Part shown: piece after piece, positions 4,019 to 23,396 of the stretch
How positions within the stretch are numbered: position 1 is the stretch's first letter
How the letters are laid out: the number at the start of each line of letters is the position of its first letter
Source: Pelomonas sp. Root1217
GTDB taxonomy: Bacteria > Pseudomonadota > Gammaproteobacteria > Burkholderiales > Burkholderiaceae_C
DNA: 64,000 nucleotides
Direction of reading: 5' to 3'
Assembly (NCBI RefSeq): GCF_001425705.1
Contig: NZ_LMDC01000001.1
Location: 248,001 to 312,000, forward strand
Position numbers and translations under genes: made by a program
Notes under the pieces: model-generated
What the model saw: the letters and a program-made list of their open reading frames with translations, nothing else
Told to the model about the DNA's origin: nothing
Database searches by the model: none

Positions 4019-4035
4019 GTGGTCCCTCCGACAGG
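4019..4035. repeat. Distal attachment site (copy of tRNA-Arg 3' end)
   Basis: GTGGTCCCTCCGACAGG is identical to 23380-23396 in the tRNA-Arg gene and continues with partial matches for about eight more bases. This is the duplicated core expected when a tyrosine integrase uses a tRNA 3' end as the attachment site. Confidence 0.85.
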
Positions 4036-4095
4036 GACCGAAGATCGGCCGCTAACCCGCATGGCTACTAGCGATGCGATCCAGGCTGGTCGGCT

Positions 4096-4119
4096 TGTTC
4101 CCCTATTTGTTCCCCTACC
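4096..4119. repeat. Candidate integrase arm-type sites, left end
   Basis: Two direct copies of TGTTCCCCTA lie at 4096-4105 and 4108-4117, 12 bases apart. The second, extended to TGTTCCCCTACC (4108-4119), recurs exactly but inverted at 23205-23216 beside the integrase. Short repeats at both ends, inside the core duplications, are typical of arm sites bound by the N-terminal domain of tyrosine integrases. Confidence 0.6.
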
Positions 4120-4151
4120 TTGGAGGCGCTAGCCCCTCGGTGGCGCTGCGA

Positions 4152-4562
4152 TCAATGCTCGTACAGGGAAAAGGCGCGGTCGATCCACACGACATAAAAC
4201 GTGTCGTGAGCTTTGAAGCCAACCATCGGCGCCTTCCCGATGCATCGGAAGGCGATGATCGTCACGTCCTCTGTGATCACAGCTGGAATAGGCGACTTGA
4301 TTGCCTTGCGGCTAATTGTTTCGCTACCCTGTCCGTGGCGCGGCGCTTGAGCGATCTGCTGCCAGTTGAGCTGGCTTAGTTCATGCAGACGGTCCGCAAA
4401 CGCGGCCTTCTCCTCTGCCGTGCACGCGGACAAGCAATGCTCTTTGGCCAAGTACTCCAAGGAAAACTTGGGCTTCAGATGATGTGATGAGCCGGTGCCG
4501 CTATCAGGCGGAGCTAGACGTGCTCCGCCGCTGGCCCTCTGTGCCTGAATGCGCTTCACCAC
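4152..4562 (-). CDS. Putative toxin of a Panacea (DUF4065) toxin-antitoxin pair
   Basis: 136 residues, starting at a GTG 9 bases after the stop of the DUF4065 gene. The first 28 residues are low complexity; the conserved body starts at KPKFSLEYLAKEHCLSAC and ends with IAFRCIGKAPMVGFKAHDTFYVVWIDRAFSLYEH. The compact alpha/beta pattern, position and size match the variable toxin slot of Panacea (PanAT) loci, in which a DUF4065 antitoxin precedes a toxin of one of many unrelated folds. I do not recognise a catalytic motif, so the cellular target is unknown. The toxin call rests on context; the gene could instead be a non-toxic partner. Confidence 0.6.
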   Translation of the reverse strand: MVKRIQAQRASGGARLAPPDSGTGSSHHLKPKFSLEYLAKEHCLSACTAEEKAAFADRLHELSQLNWQQIAQAPRHGQGSETISRKAIKSPIPAVITEDVTIIAFRCIGKAPMVGFKAHDTFYVVWIDRAFSLYEH

Positions 4563-4571
4563 GGTGGAGCG

Positions 4572-5012
4572 TCAGTTGAGCCGCGTCTTGAAAAACCTCT
4601 GCAGCGCGCCGTGCGGAATTTGAGAGCTAGGCTCCTCGTCGTAAGCGTCCTTCCACGGATCTTCATCGTGGGTCATGTTGCGGAGCTTCCAAGCCGAGTA
4701 CTGCCCGTAAACCTCATAGACCTCATCCAGCAATTCGCGTGTGCCCGCATCGAGTGACATTGGGTCGAAATCGCCTGGAAGCGGGATCGGGCCGCTGCCG
4801 TAACTTTTGAACAGGTGATAGACGTCCGGCACAACTGGTCCGTGCGTCCATGCCTCAAGGCGTTCGCCAAAGAGAGGCTGGTCGTCGATGGCAAGAGAAA
4901 AGCCCTGCGCGTAGTACAGGAGCTTCTGCAGCTTCAAGTTGGACAGGGTATCGCCCGCCTCTTCATCGGCAAGGGACAGGAAATAGCGGGCAACGTCTGC
5001 TGCGGTCTGCAT
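4572..5012 (-). CDS. DUF4065 (Panacea/SocA-like) antitoxin
   Basis: 146 residues. The N-terminus carries the DUF4065 hallmark: a helix with DVARYFLSLA, then LSNLKLQKLLYYAQGFSLAI, then a WTHGPVVPDVYHLFKSYG segment. The Panacea domain is a promiscuous antitoxin domain that neutralises several unrelated toxins by direct binding, and relatives such as SocA act as adaptors. It precedes the putative toxin by 9 bases on the same strand, consistent with antitoxin-first co-translation. It is the first cargo module inside the left border and could help stabilise the element. Confidence 0.8.
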   Translation of the reverse strand: MQTAADVARYFLSLADEEAGDTLSNLKLQKLLYYAQGFSLAIDDQPLFGERLEAWTHGPVVPDVYHLFKSYGSGPIPLPGDFDPMSLDAGTRELLDEVYEVYGQYSAWKLRNMTHDEDPWKDAYDEEPSSQIPHGALQRFFKTRLN

Positions 5013-5218
5013 TGGTGGGGTGTCCTTGTGCTCGGACCAGTGGAGTGTATTGGCACTCCCTCAATCAGGAAATGCCGGCGCCTGAGATCGGGTTTCGGCC
5101 GGAGATGTCGTGGTGTCCATGCAGCGCAGTCTGCAGCATGGGTAGCTCATGAGGTGAACCTATTCCTCGCGAAGGAAGTCCGCGGTCATCCACCGGCGAA
5201 TGTGGGTCACCAAGGCGT

Positions 5219-5242
5219 GAAAAAGCCCGCGCGCGGCGGGCT
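5219..5242 (-). terminator. Rho-independent terminator after the CopG-type antitoxin gene
   Basis: On the minus strand an AGCCCGC/GCGGGCT stem with a 5-base GC loop is followed by TTTTT. It lies 20 bases beyond the stop of the gene at 5262, so it should end that toxin-antitoxin transcript. Confidence 0.75.
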
Positions 5243-5261
5243 CTTGATGGGTGACCGAGCG

Positions 5262-5675
5262 TCAGGCGGCGAGACGGCTTTCTTCTTGAACAGCAAGCGA
5301 CTCAGCCATTGCGACAGCTGCCGCCGCGGCCTTCTCTGCTTCAAGGGCGAGCTCTTTGTCGCGCTCAAGCTCCTGCTGACGGCGCACAGCCTGGTCCCGG
5401 AGGATCGCGCGCTTCTCAGCATCCACAAAGCGCTTGCAGATCTCGCGGATCAGCGGTTGATACCCCATTCCGTTCAGTTGCGCGATCGCCTTCAAATCGC
5501 GCACCAATTCTTTGGTGAATCGAATAGAAATGGGATGCAGTCCGAGGACATCGTCGACGTTGCTCGACTCCTCAGCCTTGCGGGCGTGGGCTGGATCGTT
5601 CCCAAGCGGTCCAGTAGGCCCCCAGTCATCCGCCGACGCTTCGACTCGAGCGAGCAGATCTTGGTTGATGGGCAT
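5262..5675 (-). CDS. CopG/ribbon-helix-helix-type antitoxin
   Basis: 137 residues from the ATG at 5675, which has AGGAG 7 bases upstream. After a linker, residues about 48-80 form a ribbon-helix-helix-like segment (HPISIRFTKELVRDLKAIAQ, then YQPLIREICKRFV), as in BrnA and CopG antitoxins. The C-terminal 50 residues are a long charged helix rich in Ala, Glu and Arg, likely a coiled coil. It follows the toxin-like gene at 5686 with a 10-base gap, the toxin-first order seen in BrnT/BrnA-like systems. It probably autoregulates through the TGTATATACA palindromes upstream of the operon. Confidence 0.7.
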   Translation of the reverse strand: MPINQDLLARVEASADDWGPTGPLGNDPAHARKAEESSNVDDVLGLHPISIRFTKELVRDLKAIAQLNGMGYQPLIREICKRFVDAEKRAILRDQAVRRQQELERDKELALEAEKAAAAAVAMAESLAVQEESRLAA

Positions 5676-5685
5676 GCGTTGACTC

Positions 5686-5973
5686 CTAGTGTGCGAGAAA
5701 TTCAAAAAGGTCTTGTATGGTCTTCGTGGCCGGGTAGGCGGACTTCAGATAAACGTTCTCATCGTCTTCCACGTACACAATCTTGAGCAATTTTCCGAGG
5801 TGAGTCTCTGAGACGAACCATTGCGTCGCAGGGTCCGTTTTGTGCTCTTCTCGATCATCCTCGGCGACCCTGCCACACCGGTTCAGGAAGCACTCTTGGA
5901 CTTCCCTCTCGGTGACTGACCCGTGCGAAGGATCCCCAATCTTGGCGCGAATGGTTGGCGAGATGATGAGCAT
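5686..5973 (-). CDS. Putative toxin paired with CopG antitoxin (BrnT-like context)
   Basis: 95 residues from MLIISPTIRAKI. The conserved pattern is a helix, then GSVTEREVQECFLNRCG, DDREEHKTDP, TQWFV, and a strand-rich C-terminus with LLKIVYVEDDENVYLKSAYPA. Such proteins are often annotated, without proof, as ADP-ribosyl-(dinitrogen reductase) hydrolases; size, fold pattern and neighbour fit a small RNase- or BrnT-like toxin better. An in-frame ATG at 6009 would add 12 residues, but family members begin near the ISPxIxAK motif. There is no good ribosome-binding site before 5973, and the TGTATATACA palindrome lies just 9 bases upstream. Confidence 0.6.
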   Translation of the reverse strand: MLIISPTIRAKIGDPSHGSVTEREVQECFLNRCGRVAEDDREEHKTDPATQWFVSETHLGKLLKIVYVEDDENVYLKSAYPATKTIQDLFEFLAH

Positions 5974-5981
5974 GTGTAAAT

Positions 5982-5991
5982 TGTATATACA
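5982..5991. promoter_or_regulatory. Palindromic operator candidate, proximal copy
   Basis: TGTATATACA is a perfect 10-base palindrome, part of TTGTATATACAG, 9 bases before the toxin-like gene's start codon. An identical palindrome lies 78 bases further upstream. Paired AT-rich palindromes in a GC-rich context suit a dimeric ribbon-helix-helix autorepressor. Confidence 0.55.
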
Positions 5992-6059
5992 GAAGCATTT
6001 CACCTCCATCGGCTACGGACATTCACCCAGGTAGGCGCTGGTCAGTCCGGTCAACGGAC

Positions 6060-6069
6060 TGTATATACA
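6060..6069. promoter_or_regulatory. Palindromic operator candidate, distal copy
   Basis: Second TGTATATACA, here in CTGTATATACAA, the inverted form of the flanks of the proximal copy. Together the two sites form an inverted pair bracketing the likely promoter of the toxin-antitoxin operon. Confidence 0.5.
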
Positions 6070-6277
6070 AACGGGTTGACCTGACGTAGGACAGGGCGAA
6101 AAAAACGGGTGAAAAGCACCCCCTGTTCACGGGACGCGACGCATGAGCGTTCATGGGCTGTATGGAAGCCCAGCGTGGGTCAGCGGTCGATCAGCCCGCC
6201 CTCAATCGCTTGCAGCAACGCCTGCGGCCCCGTGGTCACGGCCAGCTTGCGAGCGGCTGTCTCACTTGCTGGCGAGC

Positions 6278-6829
6278 CTAGATGTCGGATTCACGAGCTT
6301 TGGTGGCCTTTGCACGGCGCAGGAGCGCGCCCTCGGAATGCAGACCAAGGGCTGACGTCTCGATGTCCCCAGTGAAGCGCTTGATCATCAGGCTGGCGCC
6401 TGCTTGCCTAAGGTTGCAAGTGACTTGCTGGAACTTCCCGCCCATTCGGTTTTCGATTTGGCTGGTGGTGCACTGAAGCTTCGGGTACTTGCCCTTCACG
6501 GCCCCAAGAACGGCATCAAAGTTCTCGGCCTTGAAGAAGAACAAAAGGCCCTCCAAGCGTCCTTCGTTCCAGTCAAGGTTGAACGGGTCCTGGTAGCCCT
6601 GGGTCGACATCACGCCGCCAATGGTTGGCTCCGATTTCGGCAGGGCTATGAACTCGGCCGTGGTCATGCCGATGAACATGCCCTTTATGGCTATGGGTTC
6701 GCCTTTCAGTGGCGCCTTGGCCATGGACGCCGCTGGGGCGGGCGCCTCGGAAGCGGGAGGTTTGCCTGCAGCGTGAGACCAGGCGACTGACCAGGCGATC
6801 AACGCCATACAAAACCGCTTCACTCCCAT
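6278..6829 (-). CDS. Secreted protein of unknown function
   Basis: About 183 residues with an N-terminal signal peptide (residues 1-22, MGVKRFCMALIAWSVAWSHA) followed by an Ala/Pro-rich linker. The mature domain has IAIKGMFIGMTTAEF near residue 50, resembling small periplasmic domains with a structural-correspondence pattern, and two cysteines (YPKLQC and VTCNL). The start is ambiguous: GGGAGG abuts the ATG at 6829 but is ideally placed for the GTG at 6823. No family is recognised with confidence. It stands alone on the minus strand inside the element. Confidence 0.6.
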   Translation of the reverse strand: MGVKRFCMALIAWSVAWSHAAGKPPASEAPAPAASMAKAPLKGEPIAIKGMFIGMTTAEFIALPKSEPTIGGVMSTQGYQDPFNLDWNEGRLEGLLFFFKAENFDAVLGAVKGKYPKLQCTTSQIENRMGGKFQQVTCNLRQAGASLMIKRFTGDIETSALGLHSEGALLRRAKATKARESDI

Positions 6830-6916
6830 CCTCCCAAGGATTGCCTGTCTGCTCAGCCTATCAGCGACTGCGCCGCCAGCATCCGGGGAAACCAAGGGCT
6901 TCTGCTGGCGTCGGCC

Positions 6917-6946
6917 CAAAAGAAACCCCGGCACTCGGTCGGGGCT
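6917..6946 (-). terminator. Rho-independent terminator, minus strand
   Basis: On the minus strand CCCCG, a 9-base loop and CGGGG are followed by TTTCTTTT. It lies about 180 bases past the stop of the frameshifted gene at 7127, and would also insulate the secreted protein gene at 6278-6829 from upstream transcription. Confidence 0.65.
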
Positions 6947-7126
6947 GAACCCTCTTCGCTGTCACGTCGAGGCCTGCTCAGGGAGGTGAAGCAGGGGGCC
7001 GTGGCCCGCCGCTACTGTACGCGTTCAACGCCCGCGAAGCTCGCGGCAGGCGGTGCCGATGCTGGAGGGGATCCACCGAGTAAAACGTTTAAGAGATTCG
7101 CCCCCTCAGCCGGCGAGCAAATTGCT

Positions 7127-7883
7127 CTACTCGTCCTCGAGCCATTGCGGCTCGGATCGCTGTAGCGCCCGCAGTTCGGGCGGCACCGCGGCGAGATCGG
7201 CATGCAGCTTTTGGCCGATGGCCTGCAAGCGCGGCGCCTGTGCCCGTTCTGCCAGGATGACGCTGCGGCGGAGGGTCTCAAGGCGGAGGAACGCTTGAGT
7301 TCGCAACTGCAGCAACTCCTGAACGGTGCCCAGGTATTCCTGGACCCGATAGCGGTGGTCGCTGAACTCGCGTGCCGTCTTGCCAGACCGCGACACCTTG
7401 AAGGTGGACACGACCACGCCGCGCCAGCGCCTCGTCGTGCGGTGCTGGATCCACTTCACGGCCATCGGGGCATAAACACTTATGCCGGCCTTGGTGCGCT
7501 TCCAGCGCTCAATCCGGATCTTGCCGGTCCTCGGTGGCTGGTACAGGTTCAGCAGTTCGTTGATCTGGTCCAGCAGGTGATCGATGCGGCGGATGTAGGC
7601 GAGTTGCGCCGCGACGGCGGTGAGGGCGCGAAGCTCTAGGTTGCCCTGCGGCGCCGCGCAGCGTGCAGTGAAGCTGGGTCAACAGATGTGGCCAGGGATG
7701 AGCCGTCAGGCGGTGATCGATCGGCTGGTAATCGACGGAATCAGCGCCGTCCTTCACCAGCCATGGCGAGAGCCAATACTGCACGGGTCGCGCCACAGAT
7801 GGGAGCTGCCACCGGATGTCGCCGCGCTTGCGGAAAAGTCGATCCCGGGAAAAGGGCGGGTCTAGGGCCGCGTTAGGACCCAT
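7127..7883 (-). pseudogene. Frameshifted gene of unknown function
   Basis: Two overlapping minus-strand frames each look coding in only one part. From 7883 to about 7660 the frame starting MGPNAALDPPFSRDRLFRKR reads well (RWQLPSVARPVQYWLSP). From about 7650 down to 7127 the next frame reads well (AYIRRIDHLLDQINELLNL, then KIRIERWKRTKAGISVYAP, ending EPQWLEDE). Joining them requires skipping one base near 7650-7665 in a CG-rich run. The joined protein would have about 250 residues, a basic middle and a helical C-terminus. I do not recognise the family. This may be a disabled gene, programmed +1 frameshifting or a sequencing error; a shorter protein could still start at ATG 7465. Confidence 0.5.
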
Positions 7884-7917
7884 TTTCCCGGAAGTGCTTG
7901 AAGGGGTAGGAGGTGCG

Positions 7918-7936
7918 GTGTGAAATGTTTTCACAC
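7918..7936. promoter_or_regulatory. Palindromic operator candidate in divergent region
   Basis: GTGTGAAATGTTTTCACAC is a near-perfect inverted repeat (GTGTGAAA/TTTTCACAC) between the divergent gene at 7883 and the small regulator at 7953. It could be the binding site of that regulator. Confidence 0.45.
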
Positions 7937-7952
7937 TGATCAAGGCGACCCC

Positions 7953-8150
7953 ATGGAACACCTCAAGACCTCCGACATGGACCCGCTGCTTACGCCGCGT
8001 GAGGCAGCTCAGCGCCTGCTTGAAGAGGCGACGAAGACTGCCGTTCGCACTGGCGGTGTCGCAGGTCTGCGCCCGGTCGTCGTTGATGGTCGGCGCATGT
8101 TCCGCTTCTCAGACGTTGACAGCTTTGCGCGGCTGGCGCTTGCAGCATGA
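7953..8150 (+). CDS. Small helix-turn-helix/excisionase-like protein
   Basis: 65 residues from the ATG at 7953 (AAGG upstream). The sequence LLTPREAAQRLLEEATK, then VVVDGRRMFRFSDVDSFA, resembles MerR/excisionase-type winged helix-turn-helix domains that read a DNA site and often regulate or excise mobile elements. The next gene begins inside its stop codon (ATGA overlap at 8147), so translation is coupled. An earlier in-frame ATG at 7920 lies inside the palindrome and lacks a ribosome-binding site. Confidence 0.55.
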   Translation: MEHLKTSDMDPLLTPREAAQRLLEEATKTAVRTGGVAGLRPVVVDGRRMFRFSDVDSFARLALAA

Positions 8151-8389
8151 GCGACCTTTTCAACATCCTGCGCGTTTGCGATGAGGCGAATGCTACGGAG
8201 CCTCTCACTACCAGCGAGGTTCTGACAGCTCTTCGCATCGCCATCGCGGCCGGCATGGGTGAGTACGCCACGCAACTGCTGGCGACCTTCGTCGAGATGG
8301 AGGGCGCGGACGCAGAGCTGCGAGAAAGCACCGCTGCGCTGATCTTCAACCAGGCGACGGCGAACCCTGGCATTCACAAAACCCATTGA
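8147..8389 (+). CDS. Small protein of unknown function, phage-like operon
   Basis: 80 residues, acidic, predicted all-helical (TTSEVLTALRIAIAAGMGEYATQLLATFVEME). It overlaps the preceding regulator by ATGA and is followed within 15 bases by the first virion-like gene, so it belongs to the same transcript. No family recognised. Confidence 0.6.
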   Translation: MSDLFNILRVCDEANATEPLTTSEVLTALRIAIAAGMGEYATQLLATFVEMEGADAELRESTAALIFNQATANPGIHKTH

Positions 8390-8403
8390 TTGAAGGAGCG
8401 CCT

Positions 8404-9684
8404 GTGGGCCTGCTTGATTTTCTTTTCGACGACCGGAGCAACGCACCCCAACCTGGCGCCGGAGCACAAGGCGGGTTGCTCAGCACTGCCGCACCCGCGC
8501 GTCCCGCAGGTTTGCTTGGCACAAGTTGGGAAGATCCGCGGACCGCCGCCAGCCTGAATGCGGCCATGGGCCTACTTACGCCGACGACGCGACGCAGGGG
8601 CGTCATGGAAGGGCTGGCACAGGCGATGGGCGCTTATCAGTCCACGCTGTCAGATGGCCGGCGTCAGCAGGAAGCCGACCAACTCAAGCAACTTCAGCAG
8701 CGCGTTGCGCTTCAGCAGGCCCAGCGCCAGGCCGAGCAGCAGAAGCGGCAACAGGACTTCATCACCAACTTGCCTTCGTTGCAGATGCAAGGTGCACAGT
8801 CCGCGCTGGCCGGCGGCGGTGGTCCGACCATGGCCAATGCCTCCAAGATGCCCGCGGTCGATCCCCAGCAAGCCCAGCTGCTCGAAGCCGTGCGGGCAGG
8901 CGTGATGCCCTACGGGGACTATCTCGCGGCCACTCGCAAGGACAACACGCCGGTTCAGGTGGCGCCGGGCGGCACGCTGTACGACGTGCGCGCTGGCAAG
9001 CCAATTTACACGGCGCCCAAGGAAGAGGCGAGTCCGAGCGCGCTCAAGGAATACAACTTTGCCAAGGCGCAGGGCTACCCCGGCTCATTCATCGACTTCC
9101 AGTTGGCGCAGAAGCGGGCCGGCGCCACCAACGTGACGGTCAGCACCGAGAAGGGCTACGGCGAGAAGATCGCCTCCGGCATGGCGGACCGCGACCTGTC
9201 GGCTATCGACGCCGCCAGGAACGCGCCGGACCAGATCGCATCGGCTCAGCGCATTCGTTCCATCCTCTCCAGTCAGAAGCCGATCACCGGCACCGGCGCA
9301 GACACGCGCCTCGCGCTGTCGAAGGCTCTCTACACGGCTGGTCTGACGAAAGGTGAGGATGTAGTCGCGACGGAGAACCTGCAGCGCGAGCTATCGCAAG
9401 CGACGCTGGCAGCTGTCAAGTCGTCCGGGCTTGGGGCCGGCAGCGGCTTCAGCAACGCAGACCGCGACTTCCTGGAGAAGGCTGCGGCCGGCACTATTGC
9501 GGTCAACGCGGAAACGTTGGCCAAGACGGCCGAGCTGAACGAACGCCTCGGCCGCCGCCACATCGACGTGGGAAATGCAGCGCTGAAGCGCGTAAAGAGC
9601 GCGCCGGGCATGGGCACCTTGCCCTTTGGCCCTGAAATCGCCCAACCGGCTGGCAACGTTGTGGACTTCGGGAGCCTCAAGTAA
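8404..9684 (+). CDS. Phage virion-like internal protein (putative ejection protein)
   Basis: 426 residues from the GTG at 8404, which has AAGGAG 7 bases upstream; the TTG at 8386 is a poorer choice. Order: a Gly/Ala-rich N-terminus (MGLLDFLFDDRS), a helical region rich in Gln (residues about 80-120, probable coiled coil), a middle segment with QVAPGGTLYDV, then KEYNFAKAQGYPGSFIDFQLAQ, which is common in phage structural proteins, and a helical C-terminus. It fits internal or ejection proteins of podovirus-like phages. It overlaps the next gene by one base (TAATG). The specific role is inferred from pattern and neighbour only. Confidence 0.55.
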   Translation: MGLLDFLFDDRSNAPQPGAGAQGGLLSTAAPARPAGLLGTSWEDPRTAASLNAAMGLLTPTTRRRGVMEGLAQAMGAYQSTLSDGRRQQEADQLKQLQQRVALQQAQRQAEQQKRQQDFITNLPSLQMQGAQSALAGGGGPTMANASKMPAVDPQQAQLLEAVRAGVMPYGDYLAATRKDNTPVQVAPGGTLYDVRAGKPIYTAPKEEASPSALKEYNFAKAQGYPGSFIDFQLAQKRAGATNVTVSTEKGYGEKIASGMADRDLSAIDAARNAPDQIASAQRIRSILSSQKPITGTGADTRLALSKALYTAGLTKGEDVVATENLQRELSQATLAAVKSSGLGAGSGFSNADRDFLEKAAAGTIAVNAETLAKTAELNERLGRRHIDVGNAALKRVKSAPGMGTLPFGPEIAQPAGNVVDFGSLK

Positions 9685-11408
9685 TGGACGTGCGCCTGCC
9701 TGACGGCACCCTCATTCAGAACGTGCCCGACGGCACGACCAAGGCCGACCTCGTCGCCAAGCTCAAGAACAACGGCATGAATGTGCCGGCGGAATGGATG
9801 AGCACCACTGCGCCGCCAACGCCGGCCGGCCCGCCAATGTCGCGGATGGAGAAGATCGGGCAGGGCGTTGTAGATCCGGTGAATGGTGGCGCACAGTTGC
9901 TGACCCACCTGCTACCTGATGGCGTCGTCAAGGCCGGGAACAACTTCAACAACTGGCTCGCTGACAAGACCGGCCTTGTTGCTAAGCTGCCTGAGGGCGG
10001 CGTTGACAAGCAGGTTCGCGAGCAGGAGAAGGCGTATCAACAGAAGCGGGCGGCCGCTGGCGAGCAGGGCGTTGACTGGTGGCGCGTCGGCGGCAATGTG
10101 GTCAGCCCGGTGAACCTGACTGTGGGCCGACTCATTCCGGGCGGCGGCGGTCTCGGTATGCGGACGATCAAGGGCGCGGTCAACGGCGGTGTATCCGGTG
10201 CTCTGTCGCCCACAGTGACCGAAGGGGACTACTGGGACGAGAAGGCAAAGCAGGTCGGTCTGGCCACCGTTGGCGGCGGGATCGTGCCCTCGGCCGTGGC
10301 CGGCGTTTCTCGCGTCGTCAGCCCTCTGGCCTCACGCGCCCAAGACTTGGCCCTGCTGCGGTCAGAAGGTATTCGCACGACGTTGGGCCAGACTCTGGGA
10401 GGCTTCGCCAACACCGTCGAGCAGAAGGCAATGTCTCTGCCGCTACTGGGCGATGCCATTCGGGCGGCTCGGCAGCGAAGCGTCGATGACTTGAACCAGG
10501 CGGTGGCCAATCGCGCGTTGACGCCGGTCGGCCAGCAACTGCCCCCGGGGATGAAGGGTCGTGAAGCTGTGGACGCCATCAAGACCGCACTGGGCGACGC
10601 CTACGACAAGGTCTTGCCCAACCTAACGGTCAAGGCAGACGGTTCGTTCATGCGCGAGCTGGCGCAGACCCACAGCATGGTGCAGACCGGCGCACTCGCC
10701 CCCACAGCGGTGCAAGCGTTTAACCGCATCCTCACCAACGATGTTCTGTCGAAGCTGCAAGGGCAGGGCGCGATGACGGGCCAAACCCTGAAGGCGGTGG
10801 AAAGCGACCTCGGCCAGCAGATCAGCCGGCTTGGGGCGTCCACCGATGCTGACCAGCGCCTGGTTGCTGACGCGCTGAAGAATGTGCGCGCCTCCCTCCG
10901 CGACTTGGCCACGCGATCCAATCCCGGCGCGGCGAAGGAACTGGCTGCCGTCAACAGCGGCTATGCGAACTTCAAGCGCCTGGAGAAGGCGGCGTCATAC
11001 GTTGGCGCTGAAGATGGCGTGTTCTCTCCGTCGCAGCTGCAGACGGCCGTCAAGGCGCTGGACCGGAGCAAGGACAAGGGGGCCTTTGCCCGCGGCGACG
11101 CACTGATGCAAGACCTTTCAGATGCCGCAAAGGGGCGGCTTGGCAACGGCGTGCCAGATAGCGGCACCGCCGGACGGTTGGCGCTTCCGGCAATGCTTGG
11201 TGCGGCGCTGTACGACCCATCGAAGTGGCCCCAGCTAGCGGCGCTGCCTGCTGCCTCGCTGCTGTACTCGCGCCCGGCGCAATACCTCGCTCGTGGCCTA
11301 TTGGCGTCGCGCCCAGCGTCGGCCGAGAAGGTAGCAGGCCTGCTCGATGAGGCCTCGCCCATGCTTGCGCCTGCAGGCGGCTTGCTTGCGGTCGGCGTAG
11401 GCAAATAG
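9684..11408 (+). CDS. Phage virion-like protein (putative internal/ejection protein)
   Basis: 574 residues. The N-terminus MDVRLPDGTLIQNVPDGTTKADLVAKL is a motif repeatedly seen at the start of phage internal or tail-tip proteins. A Gly-rich hydrophobic stretch follows (about residues 145-215: VGRLIPGGGGLGMRTIKGAV and VGLATVGGGIVPSAVAGV), then long helical regions and a second hydrophobic, Ala/Leu-rich segment near the C-terminus, features expected of proteins that cross membranes during DNA ejection. It is translationally coupled to the gene at 8404. No terminase, portal or capsid gene is present, so these two are either relics or co-opted parts. Confidence 0.55.
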   Translation: MDVRLPDGTLIQNVPDGTTKADLVAKLKNNGMNVPAEWMSTTAPPTPAGPPMSRMEKIGQGVVDPVNGGAQLLTHLLPDGVVKAGNNFNNWLADKTGLVAKLPEGGVDKQVREQEKAYQQKRAAAGEQGVDWWRVGGNVVSPVNLTVGRLIPGGGGLGMRTIKGAVNGGVSGALSPTVTEGDYWDEKAKQVGLATVGGGIVPSAVAGVSRVVSPLASRAQDLALLRSEGIRTTLGQTLGGFANTVEQKAMSLPLLGDAIRAARQRSVDDLNQAVANRALTPVGQQLPPGMKGREAVDAIKTALGDAYDKVLPNLTVKADGSFMRELAQTHSMVQTGALAPTAVQAFNRILTNDVLSKLQGQGAMTGQTLKAVESDLGQQISRLGASTDADQRLVADALKNVRASLRDLATRSNPGAAKELAAVNSGYANFKRLEKAASYVGAEDGVFSPSQLQTAVKALDRSKDKGAFARGDALMQDLSDAAKGRLGNGVPDSGTAGRLALPAMLGAALYDPSKWPQLAALPAASLLYSRPAQYLARGLLASRPASAEKVAGLLDEASPMLAPAGGLLAVGVGK

Positions 11409-14163: not shown

Positions 14164-14853
14164 CTAGACGGCGCTGGCGTCCATCGCGAAGGCCCAGGCG
14201 AACTGGGAGACGCCAAGAGCATCCCCGTCCGGCTCCGGATATTTTGCTGCCAGAACTCGGGCCTTCGTTGGCTCAAAGTCCAGCGGGACGGTCTGGAGGC
14301 CGTCAAACAGGCTGTTTTGCAAGCGCGTCCAGGCGTGGGACCAATGGACCCTGTCGCGCAGGGTACGAACCAGGATCCTCAGATGCGCCGCCAGCTCTTC
14401 GGTGTCCCAGTCAAAGCGGCTGAGTAGGATGACGTAGGCCGACGCCTGCGAATAGCTGTGCTTCGTGAGCGCCTGCGGGTCCGGCGCCTCTTCGCGCTGA
14501 AGCAGCAGGATCGCGGGATCGAAGGTCTCAGGCGCCGTGAGCAGTTGCGCCATGGTGTGCGCGGTCGAGTCGGCGTCTTCCTTGTCCCAGTCCTTGTCCA
14601 GCTTGACGGCGTAGCGGACTTGCTTGTCCGCATACTTGACGACCTCGTTGTGAAGCCAGCCCAGCACCAACTCCTGATCGGTGCGAAGGCTGAAGTTGAT
14701 CGGTGCGCCGCGCTTCGAAGCGATGCGATCCGCGATCAGCCAGGCCTCGTTCTCAACGTCCTCGGGCGTGTGCTCTCCGCGGGTCATGCGCGCGATGCGA
14801 CGAAGCTCGCTGCGGCGCTGGACGAGAAAGGCCTGGAACGGGTCCATTGGCAT
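14164..14853 (-). CDS. Unknown protein with sigma-70-region-2-like N-terminus
   Basis: 229 residues with AGGAG 8 bases upstream of ATG 14853. The N-terminus FLVQRRSELRRIARMTRGEHTPEDVENEAW looks like region 2 of small sigma factors or a related helical DNA-binding module. The region near residues 125-175 (QASAYVILLSRF, then LAAHLRILVRTLRDRVHW) could be a second helical unit. The similarity is weak, so a sigma-like regulator is only a suggestion. It is the first gene of the leftward cluster and is divergent from the gene at 15174, across a region with tandem repeats to which it could bind. Confidence 0.5.
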   Translation of the reverse strand: MPMDPFQAFLVQRRSELRRIARMTRGEHTPEDVENEAWLIADRIASKRGAPINFSLRTDQELVLGWLHNEVVKYADKQVRYAVKLDKDWDKEDADSTAHTMAQLLTAPETFDPAILLLQREEAPDPQALTKHSYSQASAYVILLSRFDWDTEELAAHLRILVRTLRDRVHWSHAWTRLQNSLFDGLQTVPLDFEPTKARVLAAKYPEPDGDALGVSQFAWAFAMDASAV

Positions 14854-16127: not shown

Positions 16128-16436
16128 ATGAACGCTCGCTCAACAGCGCTGCGGGGTCTTGCCGTCGTGGTCCTGATGATCGTTTCGGTTGACCTGACGG
16201 CTCACCCAGGCGGACTGAATGCCGAGGGGTGCCACAACAACCGCAAGACCGGCGACTACCACTGCCACCGCGCCTCGGCGATTCAGCGCGCCCAACAAGC
16301 TGCAGCAACGCCCGCACCGCCGGCCAGCGCCGTTCCCCAGCCGTCAGCACCGGCCGCGCCGACGTGCCACACCGGACCGCGAGGCGGCAGGTACACCATA
16401 ACCAAGTCGGGCAAGAAGAACTACCACGGCTGCTGA
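16128..16436 (+). CDS. Secreted YHYH-type protein with PBCV basic-adaptor-like C-terminus
   Basis: 102 residues with a signal peptide ending near VDLTAHP. A conserved His/Cys motif follows (GGLNAEGCHNNRKTGDYHCH), as in small YHYH-type domains often fused to secreted nucleases. After an Ala/Pro linker the C-terminus CHTGPRGGRYTITKSGKKNY resembles the PBCV-specific basic adaptor domain. Such domains are thought to bind metal or nucleic acid and to be exported. It lies 28 bases after the membrane protein gene, in the same operon as the S1/P1 nuclease, so a joint role in handling extracellular or periplasmic nucleic acid is plausible. Confidence 0.65.
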   Translation: MNARSTALRGLAVVVLMIVSVDLTAHPGGLNAEGCHNNRKTGDYHCHRASAIQRAQQAAATPAPPASAVPQPSAPAAPTCHTGPRGGRYTITKSGKKNYHGC

Positions 16437-16495: not shown

Positions 16496-17266
16496 ATGAG
16501 CAACACTGAAGAGCCCGTCCCCGGACGATGGTTGTACGCCTTGGGCGGCGCCCTCACTCTGGCTTATCTTGTATTGCTGGGCTTGTACTGCTTTGGTCGC
16601 TGGGCCGAGATCCGCGGCTTGGCGCCCAACAACATTGGCGACTTCCTGGCCGGTGCGTTCTCACCCCTGGCCTTCGCGTGGCTTGTCTTAGGCTTCATCC
16701 AGCAGGGGATTGAGCTCCGTCAGAACAGCGCAGCTTTGCGTTTGCAGGCTGAGGAACTGCGGTCAGCAGCAGAGCACGCGGGCGCGATGGTCGAGCTGCA
16801 GCGCAAGGAATTCGACCTTCGAATCGAGGAACTGGAAGACGCTCGCGCGAAGGCTGATGAGGCGGCCGCCGCGCAGGCTAGACGGCGTGAACAGCAGGCC
16901 AAGTGGCGTGAAGAGGAAGCCATCAAGCAAAAGCAACCGCGGTTGCGATTCACCCTTTTTCACCGCGACCATCGCCAGCACCACATCGCACGTGGGACGC
17001 TCGAGAACGACGGGCCGGCATGCACGAACGTCTCCGTCGAACTTGAGGGCATTCCAGATGTACTGTCGCTCGAGCGCCCCTTCAGCCTAGCCAACTTTCC
17101 TTCCAAGCTCAAGGAGCCGATGGCGTTCGTCAGCCACGGTTCTCACTCACTGACTCAGCCGCTAACCGTCCGCTACACCGATTCAGATGGTGTAGTCCGA
17201 ACGGTTGGCTTCATTGTGTCGGTGACGAACTCCGTGATTTCCGTAGATGAAGCTGACGACATATAG
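16496..17266 (+). CDS. Two-helix membrane protein with coiled coil
   Basis: 256 residues from the ATG at 16496; the longer open frame reaching back to 16229 overlaps the YHYH gene and is rejected. Membrane helices lie at about residues 12-32 and 48-68 (LALTLAYLVLLGLY-like, then FSPLAFAWLVLGFIQQG). A charged coiled coil follows (residues about 75-145, rich in Glu, Arg and Ala), then a beta-rich domain of about 100 residues (FTLFHRDHRQHH, VSVELEGIPDVL, LTVRYTDSDGVVRTVGF). Similar proteins are annotated only as hypothetical membrane proteins. Its last 20 bases overlap the nuclease gene, indicating translational coupling. Confidence 0.65.
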   Translation: MSNTEEPVPGRWLYALGGALTLAYLVLLGLYCFGRWAEIRGLAPNNIGDFLAGAFSPLAFAWLVLGFIQQGIELRQNSAALRLQAEELRSAAEHAGAMVELQRKEFDLRIEELEDARAKADEAAAAQARRREQQAKWREEEAIKQKQPRLRFTLFHRDHRQHHIARGTLENDGPACTNVSVELEGIPDVLSLERPFSLANFPSKLKEPMAFVSHGSHSLTQPLTVRYTDSDGVVRTVGFIVSVTNSVISVDEADDI

Positions 17267-18077
17267 AACCGAAGGCTGCTTGCGTGGCACTCGCAAACCC
17301 GTTCGATGGTTGCTCGTCGCCCTATGTGCAGTCAGCGTGTCCAGTGCTCGGGCCTGGGGTGCCGAAGGCCATCGCCTCATCGCCGAGCTGGCGCAGAAGC
17401 AGCTGACCCTCTCAGCCACCGCCGAGGTCGACCGCCTGCTGGGCCTGGAACCTGGCGCGACGATGGTGTCGGTGTCCACGTGGGCCGACGAGAAGCGGGC
17501 GCCCGCCACGGCGCCGCTGCACTACGTCAACCCGCCTGAAGGAGCCTGCGACTACGACCGGCAGCGCGACTGCCGAGACGGTCGCTGCGTCGTCGAGGCG
17601 ATCACGGCGAAGGTCGCCATCCTGAAGTCGAGGGCATCGGACGCCGAGAGGCTGGCGGCGCTGAAGTGGGTCATCCACCTGGTGGGCGACGTTCACCAAC
17701 CGCTGCATGTTGGCCTGGCGCACGACAAGGGCGGCAACCTGTACCAGGTTCGCGCCTTCGGCCGTGGAAGCAACTTACACGCGGTGTGGGATAGCGCGAT
17801 GCTAAAGCGGCTGCCCTACAGCGCAGAGCTGGTGGCCAGCGCCGCAGCGGCTGTGCCGGCCGTGTCGGTGCGTTCGGACCCGGCAGCCTGGGCGAGCGAG
17901 TCGTGCGCCCTAAGCCGCAGCGCGGACTTCTACCCCGAGGACCGGAAGGTGGACGCCGCGTACCTAGCTCGGTGGGACGCCACGCTGGTCCGCCAACTGG
18001 CACGCGCCGGCATGCGCCTCGCCGCCACCCTGAATGAGGCCCTGGGTTCAGCGCCCGCTGCCCGCGACAAAAAGTAG
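17247..18077 (+). CDS. S1/P1 nuclease, secreted zinc-dependent
   Basis: 276 residues. A basic N-terminus and signal peptide lead to a mature start at Trp37 (WGAEGHRLIAELA). All nine expected zinc ligands are visible: Trp37, His42, Asp81, His92, His144, Asp148, His154, His178 and Asp182, with the spacing of P1 nuclease. The family cleaves single-stranded DNA and RNA to 5'-mononucleotides using three zinc ions, after export. The start overlaps the preceding membrane-protein gene by 20 bases. A complete exported nuclease is unusual cargo for a tRNA-borne element; nutrient scavenging or attack on incoming DNA are possible roles. Confidence 0.9.
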   Translation: MKLTTYRTEGCLRGTRKPVRWLLVALCAVSVSSARAWGAEGHRLIAELAQKQLTLSATAEVDRLLGLEPGATMVSVSTWADEKRAPATAPLHYVNPPEGACDYDRQRDCRDGRCVVEAITAKVAILKSRASDAERLAALKWVIHLVGDVHQPLHVGLAHDKGGNLYQVRAFGRGSNLHAVWDSAMLKRLPYSAELVASAAAAVPAVSVRSDPAAWASESCALSRSADFYPEDRKVDAAYLARWDATLVRQLARAGMRLAATLNEALGSAPAARDKK

Positions 18078-18902: not shown

Positions 18903-18983
18903 TGCTCGCCCTCCCCGTCCTTCAACGCATCGTAGAGCGGCGCCAAACGCCTTCCAAGCCGGTCACGCCGGCGCATTGATGGG

Positions 18984-19185
18984 CGGCGCCTTTAGGGGCT
19001 CAAGAAACTCGGCACCCTTGCTGAAACCTTGTGGTCCGCCAACAGCCCTACTCCCTCTTTAGGGCATGACAAAACCTGGGCTGCGTTCACGCAGAAGGCT
19101 TGGTGCTGGTGCTGGTGCTGCGCAAAGCCTTCCACTGTTCCTGAGTGGTTCGCGCTCGTGACGGCCCTTTAGGGGCTTGGAAAAC
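18984..19185 (-). repeat. CCCTAAAGG motif array, three minus-oriented copies
   Basis: Copies at 18984-19012, 19053-19076 and 19162-19185, read on the minus strand, share GTTTTCnnnAGcCCCTAAAGGnnC or its GTTTTGTCA variant. They face away from the plus-oriented copies at 21339-21898. Confidence 0.6.
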
Positions 19186-19260
19186 GAGGCGCGATGGGTG
19201 CACAAATCTGTGCAGGGGGGTGCAGGAATTCCGGCAGGCCCCTGGCCTTAGGGTGCCGGC

Positions 19261-19289
19261 TTTGATTTCGGCTGATTGTTTTCAACCGG
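19261..19289 (+). repeat. Dispersed repeat module, copy 2
   Basis: TTTGATTTC, three bases, then TGATTGTTTTCAACCGG; the closest relatives are 12318-12346 (plus) and the inverted copy at 21304-21335. Confidence 0.65.
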
Positions 19290-19450
19290 CCGGCCTGTAA
19301 ATCCCTGTACTTTGCTGGAGCCCACCCGCCGCCTCGCATAGAGGTTTGTGGCCATCAATCACGCTGTTGCAAGAGAGGAAGTGCGGTTGCCGGCATCTGC
19401 GCCCAGCCCAGAATGGGTCCGCGTAGATCACCGCCACCAAGGGAGACGAA

Positions 19451-19891
19451 ATGGAGCTGATTGAGTTCGATGCTGACCGCCTGGCACGCCTATCGCGCCA
19501 ATGCGGTCAAGTGCGCGACCTGTTCGCATCGCTGATGCAGTACCTACCGGCATTGGCGGAAGACGACTTCCCGGTCAAAGGGATCACCGCCAGGCTGGCT
19601 GACGATCGCGAATGCATACATGTTCAGTACCGCTCTATTGGGATAGACCTCGTGCTTACGCAGCTGCGGGTGGACGGCACCAGCAAGGGCAAGGTCACAG
19701 CCATGCTGGTGAAGCATCCACTCCTCGCCAAGCCGCACAGTTTGGGGAGCTTCACGTTTGATCGCACTGGGATAACCGATCTGCAGAACACCGGAGACTT
19801 TGATACCGCGATTGGCAGCCTGGGTGTGCCCGTTGTGATGACGTTCCTAGAGAAGGCCGTGTACTTAGACGCTGTGCCGGCCCAAAGCTAG
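19451..19891 (+). CDS. Protein of unknown function
   Basis: 146 residues; GGGAGA precedes the start. No signal peptide or membrane helix. Alternating hydrophobic strands (IHVQYRSIGIDLVLTQLRVD, TAMLVKHPLLAKP, GSFTFDRTGI) suggest a small alpha/beta domain. No family recognised. It opens a short rightward series of tiny genes (19451-21084) enclosed between the two repeat-rich regions. Confidence 0.55.
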   Translation: MELIEFDADRLARLSRQCGQVRDLFASLMQYLPALAEDDFPVKGITARLADDRECIHVQYRSIGIDLVLTQLRVDGTSKGKVTAMLVKHPLLAKPHSLGSFTFDRTGITDLQNTGDFDTAIGSLGVPVVMTFLEKAVYLDAVPAQS

Positions 19892-20508: not shown

Positions 20509-21084
20509 TTGATTCACGACCAGTTTGAGGAAATTGACGCGACGATCATTGAATCTCTAGTGGAGAACCGGCTGTCCGAATCGACGACGGTAGAGTTCAA
20601 GGCAACCCTTCCGGACAGGTCTGACAGAGGCATCGTCGAGTTCCTGAAAGACGCCTGCGCCATGGCCAACAGCGGTGGTGGCGACATCGTCTACGGGGTA
20701 CGTGAGCTCGACGGCGTCGCCGACTCGCTACAGCCGATAGAAGACGAAACTGAGGACAAGGCGTTGCTGAGGTTGGGGCAGATGCTTGACTCCGGCATCG
20801 AGCCTCGCATCGCTGGAGCGCGCTTCCTCCCAATCAAGACGGGCAACGGCTATGTACTAGTGCTGCGGGTGCCGCAGTCTTTCGCAGGCCCGCACCGAGT
20901 CAACCGCAATGGGATGCACCGCTTCCCTCTTCGCAATGAGAGGCATGTCTCAGACATGAGCTATGACCAGCTGCGTACTGCGTTCGATCGCACATCAAGC
21001 TTGGCAGTTGCCGCGCGCGAGTTCCGCAGGGAACGGCTTTCCATAAGGTCCAGACAGGACGGGGAGGCAGCGGGGAGGGGCTGA
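20509..21084 (+). CDS. N-terminal half of an AlbA_2/Schlafen-type protein (truncated gene)
   Basis: 191 residues from a TTG with a weak ribosome-binding site. The sequence has the AlbA_2 hallmarks: ESTTVEFKATLP, DACAMANSGGGDIVYGV, a TKxGNGYVLVLRVPQS-like strand and a terminal YDQLRTAF helix. AlbA_2 domains bind nucleic acid and occur in regulators and in anti-phage or tRNA-targeting Schlafen relatives. Full-length members have about 200 further residues that begin right after the FRRERL helix; here translation stops shortly after it. The missing part matches the product at 11505-12305 on the opposite strand, so the gene has probably been split. Confidence 0.65.
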   Translation: MIHDQFEEIDATIIESLVENRLSESTTVEFKATLPDRSDRGIVEFLKDACAMANSGGGDIVYGVRELDGVADSLQPIEDETEDKALLRLGQMLDSGIEPRIAGARFLPIKTGNGYVLVLRVPQSFAGPHRVNRNGMHRFPLRNERHVSDMSYDQLRTAFDRTSSLAVAAREFRRERLSIRSRQDGEAAGRG

Positions 21085-21335: not shown

Positions 21336-21338
21336 CGG

Positions 21339-21898
21339 CTTTCTTGAGTCCCTAAAGGGGCCGAGGTTCGGCACAGTGCCGGAAAGTGCCAAAGCCAGCG
21401 GCTCAGCAAAGTGCTGATGAAGTGCTGAGGCAGGCCAAGGAGTCAGCTCGAAAAGCTGCACGCCATCAACGACATGGCGGAATAAACAACGGTGGAAATT
21501 GGGCGGCTGGCGGCTTGCTGCGCAGTACGCGCGCGTGAGGCGCTGCGCGAATCTGTGCACCGCTCGGCTCAACTACCGACTTTCCGGTAGTTGGTGGCCC
21601 CGACCCTGAGCGTTCCGCGCGCGCGTGAGATCGGCCCCGCACCGTTGCGGCGTCCTTTCCACAGATGCAGGAAAGGCCAGCAGCACCGCCCGGAGTTTTC
21701 CGAGTCCCTAAAGGACGGGGAGTTTTCGGAGTCCATAAAGAGCCGTGGTGCTGGCGCCCCAGGTGGCCAGGCTCAACCGGTCAGAAACACCGAATGGTCA
21801 AGGCGGGCCTGCGCCGGCACCAAGGAGTTTTGTCACACCAGAAAGCGCCAGCGCAGCGCGTTGCAGCGAGCGGTTTTGTCAGCCCTTAAAGGGGCGCC
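21339..21898 (+). repeat. CCCTAAAGG motif array, plus-oriented copies
   Basis: Copies at 21339-21363, 21695-21718, 21722-21745 and 21873-21898, plus a degenerate one at 21827-21849. Two neighbours have a start-to-start spacing of 27 bases. Consensus GTTTTCnnGAGTCCCTAAAGG. Spacing between the others is irregular, so this is not a CRISPR array. Confidence 0.6.
21570..21593. repeat. Perfect 9-bp DNA hairpin
   Basis: CAACTACCG and CGGTAGTTG flank the six-base loop ACTTTC. No T-run follows, so it is not an obvious terminator. Confidence 0.6.
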
Positions 21899-21947
21899 AT
21901 CCACTCAGGAACAGTGGAGGAGGCGCGCGCTAAGGTTGCACTAAGGC

Positions 21948-23195
21948 TCATCGCTTGGCGCTGGCGAGCGCAATCACCTTGGCGCCATCGCGAAGCTGAT
22001 CAAGGTAGTCCGCCCACACTTGCATAAGTTGACGGCGCAGCACCATGTATTCCGCTCGGTCGTATGCCTCGCCCAGGGGGCCGCTTTTCGTGTGCGCTAG
22101 CTGAGCCTCAATGACCTCGGGGTCAGTGCCCGGAATCCGTTCGACCATGACAGTTCGTGCCATCGCTCGGAAGCCGTGGGCGGTCATCTCGTCTCCGTCA
22201 AAGCCGAGGGACCGAAGCGCTGCGTTCAGCGTGTTGTCGCTCATAGGCCTGCCGCCGCCGCGGACGCTGGGGAAGACGTACTTCCCTTGCCCGGTAAGCG
22301 GGAGCAGATTGCGCAGCATCGCCACAGCCTGCAGCGGCAGTGGGACGAAGTGAGGAGGACCGTTGAGCTTGCCGTGCTTGCGGCGCTTCATCGCCCAGGG
22401 CGGCAGCGTCAGCATGGCGTCCTCAAGGTCGATCCACGCCCACTCCAGCGCCCGCATGTTCCCTGGACGCTGGAAGAGCATGGCGCTGAGCGCCAGTGCC
22501 ACCACTGTCGTCGGCTGGCCGGTGTAGGTCGGCAGAGCCAGCAGGAGGCGTCGCACATCCTCAGGCTTCTTCAGTGCGGGGTGATGCCGGACGACGTGGG
22601 GCTTCAGTGCGCCGATGAGATCGCCTGCGGGGTTCGTCCGGCCGCGACCTGTCTGGATGGCGTAGCGGAAGACCTGGCCGGCGTACTCCCGAACGTCGTG
22701 GGCCATCTGCGTAGACCCGCGCCCCTCGATGCGACGGATTGCCGCCAGCAGGACCGGTGCGTCCACGTCCACGATCGGCAGCGGGCCAATCCAGGGGAAG
22801 AGGTCCTTCTCGACGGCGCGCAGCCACTGGGCCGCATGGCTTTCGCTCCAGCCGGGCGCCTTGATGCCGTGCAGCTCGCGGGCGATCGCTTCGAAGGTGT
22901 TCGCGGACTTTGTCGCCTGCGTGGCGCTCTCGATCTTGCGGGCCTGGACTGGATCGGTGCCGGCTTCGTGAAGCTTGCGAGCCGTATCGCGACCCTCTCG
23001 GGCGTCCTTCAAGCCAACCGTCGGATAGGCCCCGAGGGCGAGGCGCTTCTCCTTGCCCCCGCTGAAGTACTTCCAAAACCAACGCTTGGAGCCGCTGGCG
23101 GCCACCTCAAGGTACAGGTTGCCAGAGTCGGCGAATCGAGCCCGCGGCTTGTCGGTGGGGCACTTGGCATTTCTGCATGCCGCGTCGGTGAGCAT
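21948..23195 (-). CDS. P4-type tyrosine integrase
   Basis: 415 residues, the usual length for P4-type (DUF4102) integrases. The N-terminal arm-binding domain is visible as MLTDAACRNAK, then FADSGNLYLEV and KRLALGAYPTVGLKDAR. The catalytic domain shows the box I Arg in QRPGNMRALEW, the box II HGFRAMART, and the Tyr in GEAYDRAEYMVLRRQLM. It integrates and, with an excisionase, excises the element at the tRNA-Arg 3' end. The start codon lies 185 bases from the tRNA gene, the classic arrangement. The small helix-turn-helix protein at 7953 could be its directionality factor. Confidence 0.95.
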   Translation of the reverse strand: MLTDAACRNAKCPTDKPRARFADSGNLYLEVAASGSKRWFWKYFSGGKEKRLALGAYPTVGLKDAREGRDTARKLHEAGTDPVQARKIESATQATKSANTFEAIARELHGIKAPGWSESHAAQWLRAVEKDLFPWIGPLPIVDVDAPVLLAAIRRIEGRGSTQMAHDVREYAGQVFRYAIQTGRGRTNPAGDLIGALKPHVVRHHPALKKPEDVRRLLLALPTYTGQPTTVVALALSAMLFQRPGNMRALEWAWIDLEDAMLTLPPWAMKRRKHGKLNGPPHFVPLPLQAVAMLRNLLPLTGQGKYVFPSVRGGGRPMSDNTLNAALRSLGFDGDEMTAHGFRAMARTVMVERIPGTDPEVIEAQLAHTKSGPLGEAYDRAEYMVLRRQLMQVWADYLDQLRDGAKVIALASAKR

Positions 23196-23204
23196 GGAAA
23201 CCTC

Positions 23205-23275
23205 GGTAGGGGAACAGACCGCGCTAAGTCTACGGCGGCGGCGAACGTTCCCCTAAATATTCCCCTTGTTCCCCT
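23205..23275. repeat. Candidate integrase arm-type sites, tRNA end
   Basis: GGTAGGGGAACA at 23205-23216 is the exact inverted copy of the left-end TGTTCCCCTACC. GTTCCCCTA (23247-23255), ATTCCCCTT (23259-23267) and TGTTCCCCT (23267-23275) follow. They fill the gap between the integrase start and the attachment core. Confidence 0.6.
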
Positions 23276-23379
23276 GCGATGTATGGCACGGCTTCCGGAT
23301 GCTTGGAGAAGAAAAAAGCGCCTCGGCCCTATGAAGACTGAAGCGCTTTGGATGCTCTAAGAGACTTGCGGAATTGATT

Positions 23380-23396
23380 GTGGTCCCTCCGACAGG
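23380..23396. repeat. Attachment site at the tRNA-Arg 3' end
   Basis: GTGGTCCCTCCGACAGG, overlapping the acceptor stem and T-arm of tRNA-Arg(CCT) and identical to 4019-4035. Confidence 0.85.

What the first reader, a model, noticed from the sequence alone, without database searches (positions are those of the whole stretch)
4019..23396. A 19.4 kb tRNA-Arg(CCT) integrated element with unusual cargo
A 17-bp duplicated tRNA 3' end, a P4-type integrase next to the tRNA and matching arm-type repeats define both borders directly from sequence. The cargo is neither a complete phage nor a typical ICE: two toxin-antitoxin pairs, two virion-like proteins, an exported nuclease and many unknown genes. 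This could be a phage satellite or a defence/competition island.
Basis: partly seen in the sequence, partly recalled or inferred. Interest (0 to 1): 0.75.

Follow-up and report, generated by a model that had tools for sequence, protein, structure and literature searches.

The report
Satellite-like island carrying phage DNA-ejection genes
A 19-kb mobile island in a relative of the bacterium Pelomonas carries, as its only recognised virus-particle genes, a pair resembling the proteins that podophages use to push DNA into a cell; four related islands carry genes of the same kind, so they may be phage parasites that bring their own DNA-injection machinery.

Summary
The island is real: a 17-bp tRNA-Arg(CCT) repeat bounds 19,361 bp, and relative G012 has the exact empty site. 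The two "virion-like" genes (8404-9684, 9684-11408) are an overlapping pair matching podophage DNA-ejection genes (places of P22 gp20 and gp16); no capsid, portal or terminase gene was recognised. They follow three small genes, A-B-C (7620-8389). Integrase, A and B queries, not ejection queries, gave five more A/B elements; four of five carry ejection-type genes after the cassette: G008 gp7-type alone, G002 and G126 a gp20-position gene plus gp16-type (cut short in G126), G425 all three. G287 has A without them. P22 hybrids show the same exchange units: gp7 alone, gp16 with gp20, or all three (PMC10883804). Best reading: a phage-satellite lineage supplying its own ejection proteins to helper particles. 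No helper, induction or packaging was shown; this copy lacks recognisable AlpA and replication genes and may be non-autonomous. Rivals: virion-poisoning defence, prophage remnants. Nine searches of open-access papers listed no description of such satellites.

The parts
4019..4035 (.). attL, 17-bp copy of the tRNA-Arg 3' end
23380..23396 (.). attR, 17-bp repeat overlapping the tRNA-Arg(CCT) 3' end
23381..23455 (-). tRNA-Arg(CCT), intact integration target
4095..4117 (.). two arm-type direct repeats TTGTTCCCCTA
23206..23276 (.). arm-type repeats (AGGGGAACA / TGTTCCCCT) on the integrase side
21948..23195 (-). P4-type tyrosine integrase
7620..7865 (+). cassette gene A, 81-aa protein
   Evidence: aligned with G008, G002, G126; profile hits also in G287 and G425; G425 sequence printed
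7953..8150 (+). cassette gene B, 65 aa, HTH-like by eye only
   Evidence: homologues in G008, G002, G126; no match in 50,697 phage records at E<=1 (queried as 7920-8150)
8147..8389 (+). cassette gene C, 80 aa; start overlaps the stop of B
   Evidence: a small ORF lies at this place in all five ejection elements; sequence homology seen only between the C genes of G002 and G425
8404..9684 (+). gp20-position ejection protein (GTG start after AAGGAG; longer TTG start at 8386 possible and used in the searches)
9684..11408 (+). gp16-type ejection protein; start overlaps the stop of the previous gene (TAATG)
   Evidence: no PHROG match of its own
14164..14853 (-). 229-aa protein of unknown family, shared with the G008 element (62%) where it lies next to the integrase
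4152..4562 (-). neighbour and likely partner of the SocA/Panacea antitoxin (weak NsnC and MAG6450 matches; phrog_8366 of unknown function)
4572..5012 (-). SocA/Panacea antitoxin
5262..5705 (-). CopG-like protein, below the curated cut-off
5686..6009 (-). small protein overlapping the CopG-like gene; BrnT-like by recall only
   Evidence: no family above cut-off
17247..18077 (+). S1/P1 nuclease, cargo
16128..16436 (+). YHYH-domain protein by its sequence, cargo
   Evidence: NF033223 in one of 26 ORFs (member not itemised); assigned here by eye
20509..21084 (+). Schlafen AlbA_2-domain protein, cargo

Best explanation
The region is an integrated mobile element of a phage-satellite lineage that supplies its own DNA-ejection proteins. 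Shown: site-specific integration at tRNA-Arg(CCT); a gene order A-B-C-(gp20-position)-(gp16-type) with overlapping starts and stops at B/C and at the pair; ejection-type genes after the cassette in five integrase elements (this one included), with no capsid, portal or large-terminase family recognised in the ORFs scanned. Inferred: when a podophage infects or is induced, the element's B-C-ejection genes are expressed, its gp20/gp16 pair is built into the helper's capsids during assembly, and the particles deliver DNA through a conduit made of element proteins. That could let element particles enter cells whose prophages exclude the helper (SieA-type exclusion acts on gp16/gp20), or tie particle function to the element. 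The window copy lacks recognisable AlpA and replication genes, so it probably depends on others for excision control and replication, or is a non-autonomous derivative.
For: Exact empty site and an occupied sister site. gp16-type: profile match to the G425/G002 proteins at 99% probability, E 6.7e-18, which themselves hit phrog_26400 'DNA ejection protein' at 5.1e-34 and 1.3e-27; three phage records match, two annotated DNA injection or ejection protein and one lytic transglycosylase. gp20-position: 43% local identity to the phage DSL-LC05 protein encoded directly upstream of its 'putative DNA transfer protein'. G008 and G425 gp7-type: phrog_598 'DNA ejection' 2.7e-34 and 4.2e-41. The elements were found with flank, integrase, A or B queries, not ejection queries; 4 of 5 A/B elements besides the window carry ejection-type genes after the cassette. 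Window: 26 ORFs against PHROGs give 15 families, none structural. Relatives: 59 ORFs of G008, G002, G126 and G425 against Pfam give 19 families, none capsid, portal, large terminase or tail; AlpA, DnaB, Toprim and SLT are present. The units carried match those that swap in P22: gp7 alone, gp16+gp20, or all three work; gp16 alone or gp20 alone do not (PMC10883804 section 12). SieA exclusion acts on gp16/gp20, and HK620 ejection proteins gave partial resistance.
Against: No helper, no induction, no packaging evidence. The window element has no recognised AlpA, primase, replication or TerS-type gene (one weak helicase-labelled PHROG hit is the AlbA_2 protein), and A to gp16 is only 3.8 of 19.4 kb. 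G287 carries A without ejection genes. Exclusion bypass is weak: 3 of the 4 foreign ejection sets tested in P22 were still blocked by SieA. Both ends are seen only for the window, G008 (13-bp repeat) and G287; no far att was found for G002, G126 or G425. gp20 identity in G002 and G126 is by position only (no PHROG match; no phage match for G002). B of G425 is not significantly related to the other B proteins. C is mostly positional. The G126 gp16-type gene is cut short. In relatives the PHROG list also names 'lytic tail protein', endolysin and tail-fibre families, which match the transglycosylase domain of the gp16-type proteins; only 25 of 86 PHROG families were shown. G002 carries a DUF5681 protein, a family seen near terminases (recalled). 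Contigs that look like temperate podophages with a gp16-type gene and an integrase exist (L132, L135), so decay of a prophage is conceivable.
Confidence: 0.55

Rival explanations
1. Virion-poisoning defence island: the element expresses foreign ejection proteins during infection so that progeny of an incoming podophage assemble with mismatched, non-functional ejection complexes; the island protects its host together with TA and other cargo.
For: P22 with only Sf6 gp16 or only Sf6 gp20 makes virion-like but non-infectious particles. The island carries a SocA/Panacea pair and other cargo. The satellite and defence readings are not exclusive.
Against: Element sets are those that remain functional in P22 (pair, gp7 alone, or trio), not single gp16 or gp20. 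PADLOC finds four weak families in 26 ORFs, best NsnC 1.3e-7. AlpA, DnaB and Toprim families among the relatives' ORFs point to satellites.
Confidence: 0.2
2. Prophage remnants: temperate podophages decayed and only ejection genes happen to remain beside the integrase.
For: Contigs that look like temperate podophages with a gp16-type gene and an integrase exist in IMG/VR (L132, L135). The window copy lacks replication genes. The G126 gp16-type gene is broken.
Against: Same A gene, and B in four, before ejection genes in elements with different integrases and sites; 0 of 80 phage loci with gp16-type genes carry A, B or C by tblastn (small proteins are easily missed), B absent from 50,697 phage records; window ORFs intact and coupled; no structural remains recognised.
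Confidence: 0.15
3. Generic integrative island that picked up phage genes as neutral cargo; the two genes have no role in its transfer.
For: Most of the island is unrelated cargo; in the stretches fetched, five of seven integrase-relative loci have no ejection-gene match.
Against: Cassette and gene-unit recurrence in four other elements.
Confidence: 0.1

Closest known systems
PICI and PICI-like satellites (including E. coli EcCIMP1, PMC11773190, passages seen)
   Same: integrase, att at a specific site; AlpA and primase/replication families among the relatives; no recognised capsid genes
   Different: [quoted passage not shown] here ejection genes are carried, and this copy lacks AlpA and primase
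PICMI (PMC10803314, passages seen)
   Same: integrase element without capsid-remodelling genes that depends on phage particles (the dependence is inferred here)
   Different: PICMI is modelled on int, alpA, prim and fis; the term 'ejection' occurs 0 times in that paper
cf-PICI and Mulch/Flayer satellites (PMC11389934, PMC10690885, passages seen)
   Same: satellites that encode part of the particle themselves
   Different: those encode capsid and packaging genes; here only internal ejection proteins
P22 ejection proteins gp7, gp20, gp16 (PMC10883804, abstract and section 12 read)
   Same: three-gene ejection set; the elements carry the exchange units shown for P22
   Different: sequence similarity to P22 itself was not tested; here the genes sit outside a phage genome
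P4-like satellites
   Same: P4-type integrase with arm-binding domain at a tRNA
   Different: no P4-type primase family in the Pfam scans; capsid-sizing genes were not tested for

Membership tests
phage satellite (general) | integrase between att repeats, movable | tested here: met
phage satellite (general) | no complete virion gene set | tested here: met
   window: (26 ORFs, all 15 PHROG families listed); relatives: 59 ORFs, all 19 Pfam families listed; 25 of 86 PHROG families listed
phage satellite (general) | induced, packaged and transferred by a helper phage | not testable with these tools
   needs experiment
PICI / PICMI | AlpA-type regulator | tested here: not met
   no AlpA in the window; Phage_AlpA in 2 of 59 relative ORFs, G008 at 1e-8
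PICI / PICMI | primase or replication gene | tested here: not met
   none in the window; DnaB, Toprim and replication families among relatives
cf-PICI | own capsid, portal, terminase | tested here: not met
P22-type ejection proteins | gp16-type family membership | tested here: met
   through the phrog_26400 members; direct PHROG match absent
P22-type ejection proteins | gp20 directly upstream of gp16, related to phage proteins at that place | tested here: met
   its only PHROG (24864) has no function and its model matches phage proteins, none with an ejection name
P22-type ejection proteins | present in virions and required for DNA delivery | not testable with these tools
   needs experiment
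complete prophage | capsid, portal, terminase, lysis genes | tested here: not met
ICE / IME | relaxase or conjugation genes | tested here: not met
   no such family among the window ORFs

The most novel reading that the evidence does not exclude
A previously undescribed lineage of phage satellites whose only virion genes are the ejection proteins, carried as functional exchange units (gp7; gp20+gp16; all three) behind a conserved A-B-C cassette, so that helper particles are refitted with a satellite-specific DNA-delivery conduit and can enter cells that exclude the helper.
Probability: 0.45. Interest if true: 0.88.

Novelty: new variant of a known kind. Interest (0 to 1): 0.72.

Why it matters
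Satellites in the papers seen steal or resize capsids, redirect packaging, or bring their own capsids. One that rebuilds only the injection machinery would be a new point of control: it acts in the next cell, not in the producing one. It would also link satellites to superinfection exclusion, which in P22 targets gp16 and gp20, and it makes a direct prediction: lysates of element-bearing cells should contain particles with element-encoded ejection proteins.

Tried and rejected
Structure models of both ejection proteins were of middling quality (pLDDT 70.7 and 70.0). They matched phage proteins, none with an ejection name, and the gp16-type model matched no solved structure (best E 0.066; the gp20 model was not compared with solved structures), so they add little. 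Single-protein scans found 1 relative (gp16-type, viral contigs), 0 (gp16-type, genome contigs) and 0 (gp20-position, viral contigs). Profile scans with B found only G008 (Pelomonas sp. Root1444) in genome contigs and none in viral contigs, and with A none in viral contigs. B hits in G567 and G721 lie in open frames of 874 and 647 aa, and their 3-kb loci have no ejection match: treated as chance. A helper prophage was looked for with the gp10 protein of Rhodoferax phage P26218: 0 of 60 genomes, without a positive control. phrog_598 rang only in G008 of 20 genus genomes. For the 59-ORF set I left out 16 of the 70 picks (3 integrases and 13 that I judged spurious by eye, mostly antisense), added five small ORFs by hand and shortened two. 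In the IMG/VR survey 59 of 80 loci have an upstream structural homologue; of the other 21 none was examined one by one. gp20 of the window matches only 4 of those 80 loci. No plasmid record holds the pair at DNA level. The IS110 and the phage nature of L132 and L135 are judged by eye.
Full report
What is there. A 17-bp repeat of the tRNA-Arg(CCT) 3' end lies at 4019-4035 and 23380-23396, the integrase with arm-binding domain lies next to the tRNA, and the arm-type repeat TGTTCCCCT occurs four times in 64 kb, each time near one of the two att repeats. Relative G012 has the empty site: its matches to the two flanks overlap by exactly 17 bp.

The virion-like pair. Gene 9684-11408 has 1,495 relatives at E<=1e-3 in the protein collection (only the 7,998 candidates sharing most words were scored) and 92 in IMG/VR contigs (80 kept). 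It has no PHROG match of its own, but its profile matches the G425 and G002 proteins (99%, E 6.7e-18) that hit the PHROG family 'DNA ejection protein'. Gene 8404-9684 matches a protein of phage DSL-LC05 at 43% over 162 residues; there it lies directly between 'DNA transfer protein p32' (the gp7 place) and 'putative DNA transfer protein' (the gp16 place). The two window genes share one base at stop and start (TAATG), and B and C overlap at ATGA. In contigs G227, L132 and L135 a gp16-type gene, preceded by another gene at the gp20 place, lies inside what looks like a structural gene cluster; the gp20-place protein of G227 hits phrog_2534, 'released from the phage upon host infection'.

The cassette and the family. 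Directly before the pair lie A, B and C. The searches were made with flanks, integrase, A and B, not with ejection genes. B: 3 of 20 genus genomes (window genome, G008, G002) and 3 of 399 family genomes with the G008 protein (own, G008, G126). A: 5 of 399 family genomes (own, G008, G126, G287, G425). Besides the window this gives five elements, each with an integrase: G008, G002, G126, G425, G287. Four of five carry ejection-type genes after the cassette. G008: A-B-C then a gp7-type gene (phrog_598, 2.7e-34), with AlpA and HTH_39 genes upstream and a gene that looks replication-type by eye. G002, at tRNA-Arg(TCT): A-B-C, a 275-aa gene, a gp20-position gene, a gp16-type gene with a transglycosylase domain. 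G126, at tRNA-His: A-B-C, a 113-aa gene, a gp20-position gene related to that of G002 (65% over 413 residues), and a gp16-type fragment beside what looks like an IS110. G425: A, an inserted gene, an HTH gene at the place of B, C, then gp7-, gp20- and gp16-type genes; its gp20-position protein is 50% identical over 177 residues to the protein encoded directly downstream of 'DNA injection protein' in MW202573. G287 is a 4.5-kb element with a 49-bp att repeat and A, but no ejection genes. Integrase alone does not predict ejection genes: of seven relatives' integrase loci fetched, two (G008, G002) have them; the other five had no match in the stretches held.

Nothing else of a virion was recognised. 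Of the window, 26 ORFs against PHROGs gave 15 families, among them integrase, one helicase-labelled hit at 9.8e-5 and families of unknown function, none structural. Pfam on 59 ORFs of G008, G002, G126 and G425 gave 19 families, none of them capsid, portal, large terminase or tail; it includes one DUF5681 protein, a family seen near terminases (recalled). PHROGs gave 86 families for the same set, of which 25 are shown: replication, AlpA-type and ejection families, and transglycosylase, endolysin and 'lytic tail' families that match the transglycosylase domain of the gp16-type proteins. Conversely, 0 of 80 phage loci around gp16-type genes hold A, B or C, while 59 of 80 hold a gp10-, adaptor- or tail-hub-like gene. 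Small proteins are easily missed by such searches.

Mechanism. Published work on P22 (PMC10883804, abstract and section 12 read) shows that foreign ejection proteins are built into P22 particles; that gp7 can be exchanged alone; that gp16 or gp20 alone give non-infectious particles but the pair works; and that all three work. SieA exclusion targets gp16 and gp20; of four foreign sets one (HK620) gave partial resistance and three were still blocked. The elements here carry just those exchange units. I therefore infer that they are satellites that equip helper particles with their own delivery conduit. Shown: anatomy, recurrence, integration. Inferred: expression during helper growth, incorporation, benefit. 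Not shown at all: the helper.

Limits. This copy has no recognised AlpA, replication or packaging gene and much unrelated cargo, so it may be non-autonomous. Far ends of the G002, G126 and G425 elements are unknown. gp20 in G002 and G126 is named by position. n is five ejection elements. Nine literature searches returned no paper that, from its listing or from the passages seen, describes satellites with ejection genes; one search listed 15 of 70 papers, and the library is open-access papers without preprints.

Noticed in passing
L101 (G126) 2429-7257: A second integrase gene (2572-3954) starts next to tRNA-Ser(GCT), and what looks like an IS110 transposase (6139-7257) lies beside the truncated gp16-type gene of the tRNA-His element.
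   Followed up: partly
L191 (G287) 4410-8916: A 4.5-kb element with a 49-bp att repeat at tRNA-Thr(CGT): integrase, small regulator, relaxase-like gene by eye, and gene A.
   Followed up: partly
L101 (G126) 11182-12060: A PAPS-reductase-like gene between the helicase and gene A (PAPS_reduct in 1 of 59 ORFs, assigned by eye); it may be a DNA-modification or defence gene.
   Followed up: no
L075 (G008) 8389-9501: A protease-like gene (phrog_25502 at 3e-68, Nal1_C) near the far end of the element.
   Followed up: no
window 14164-14853; L094 13833-14486; L096 10157-10912: A protein of unknown family recurs in 5 of 299 family genomes, own included: beside the integrase in G008 and within 1 kb of tRNA genes in L094; sigma-like by eye only.
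   Followed up: partly
L132, L135: IMG/VR contigs that look like temperate podophages with a gp16-type gene and an integrase; possible helpers or ancestors.
   Followed up: partly
window 11505-19891: Cargo of mostly unknown genes, several with membrane or export segments by eye, an S1/P1 nuclease and a YHYH-domain protein.
   Followed up: no
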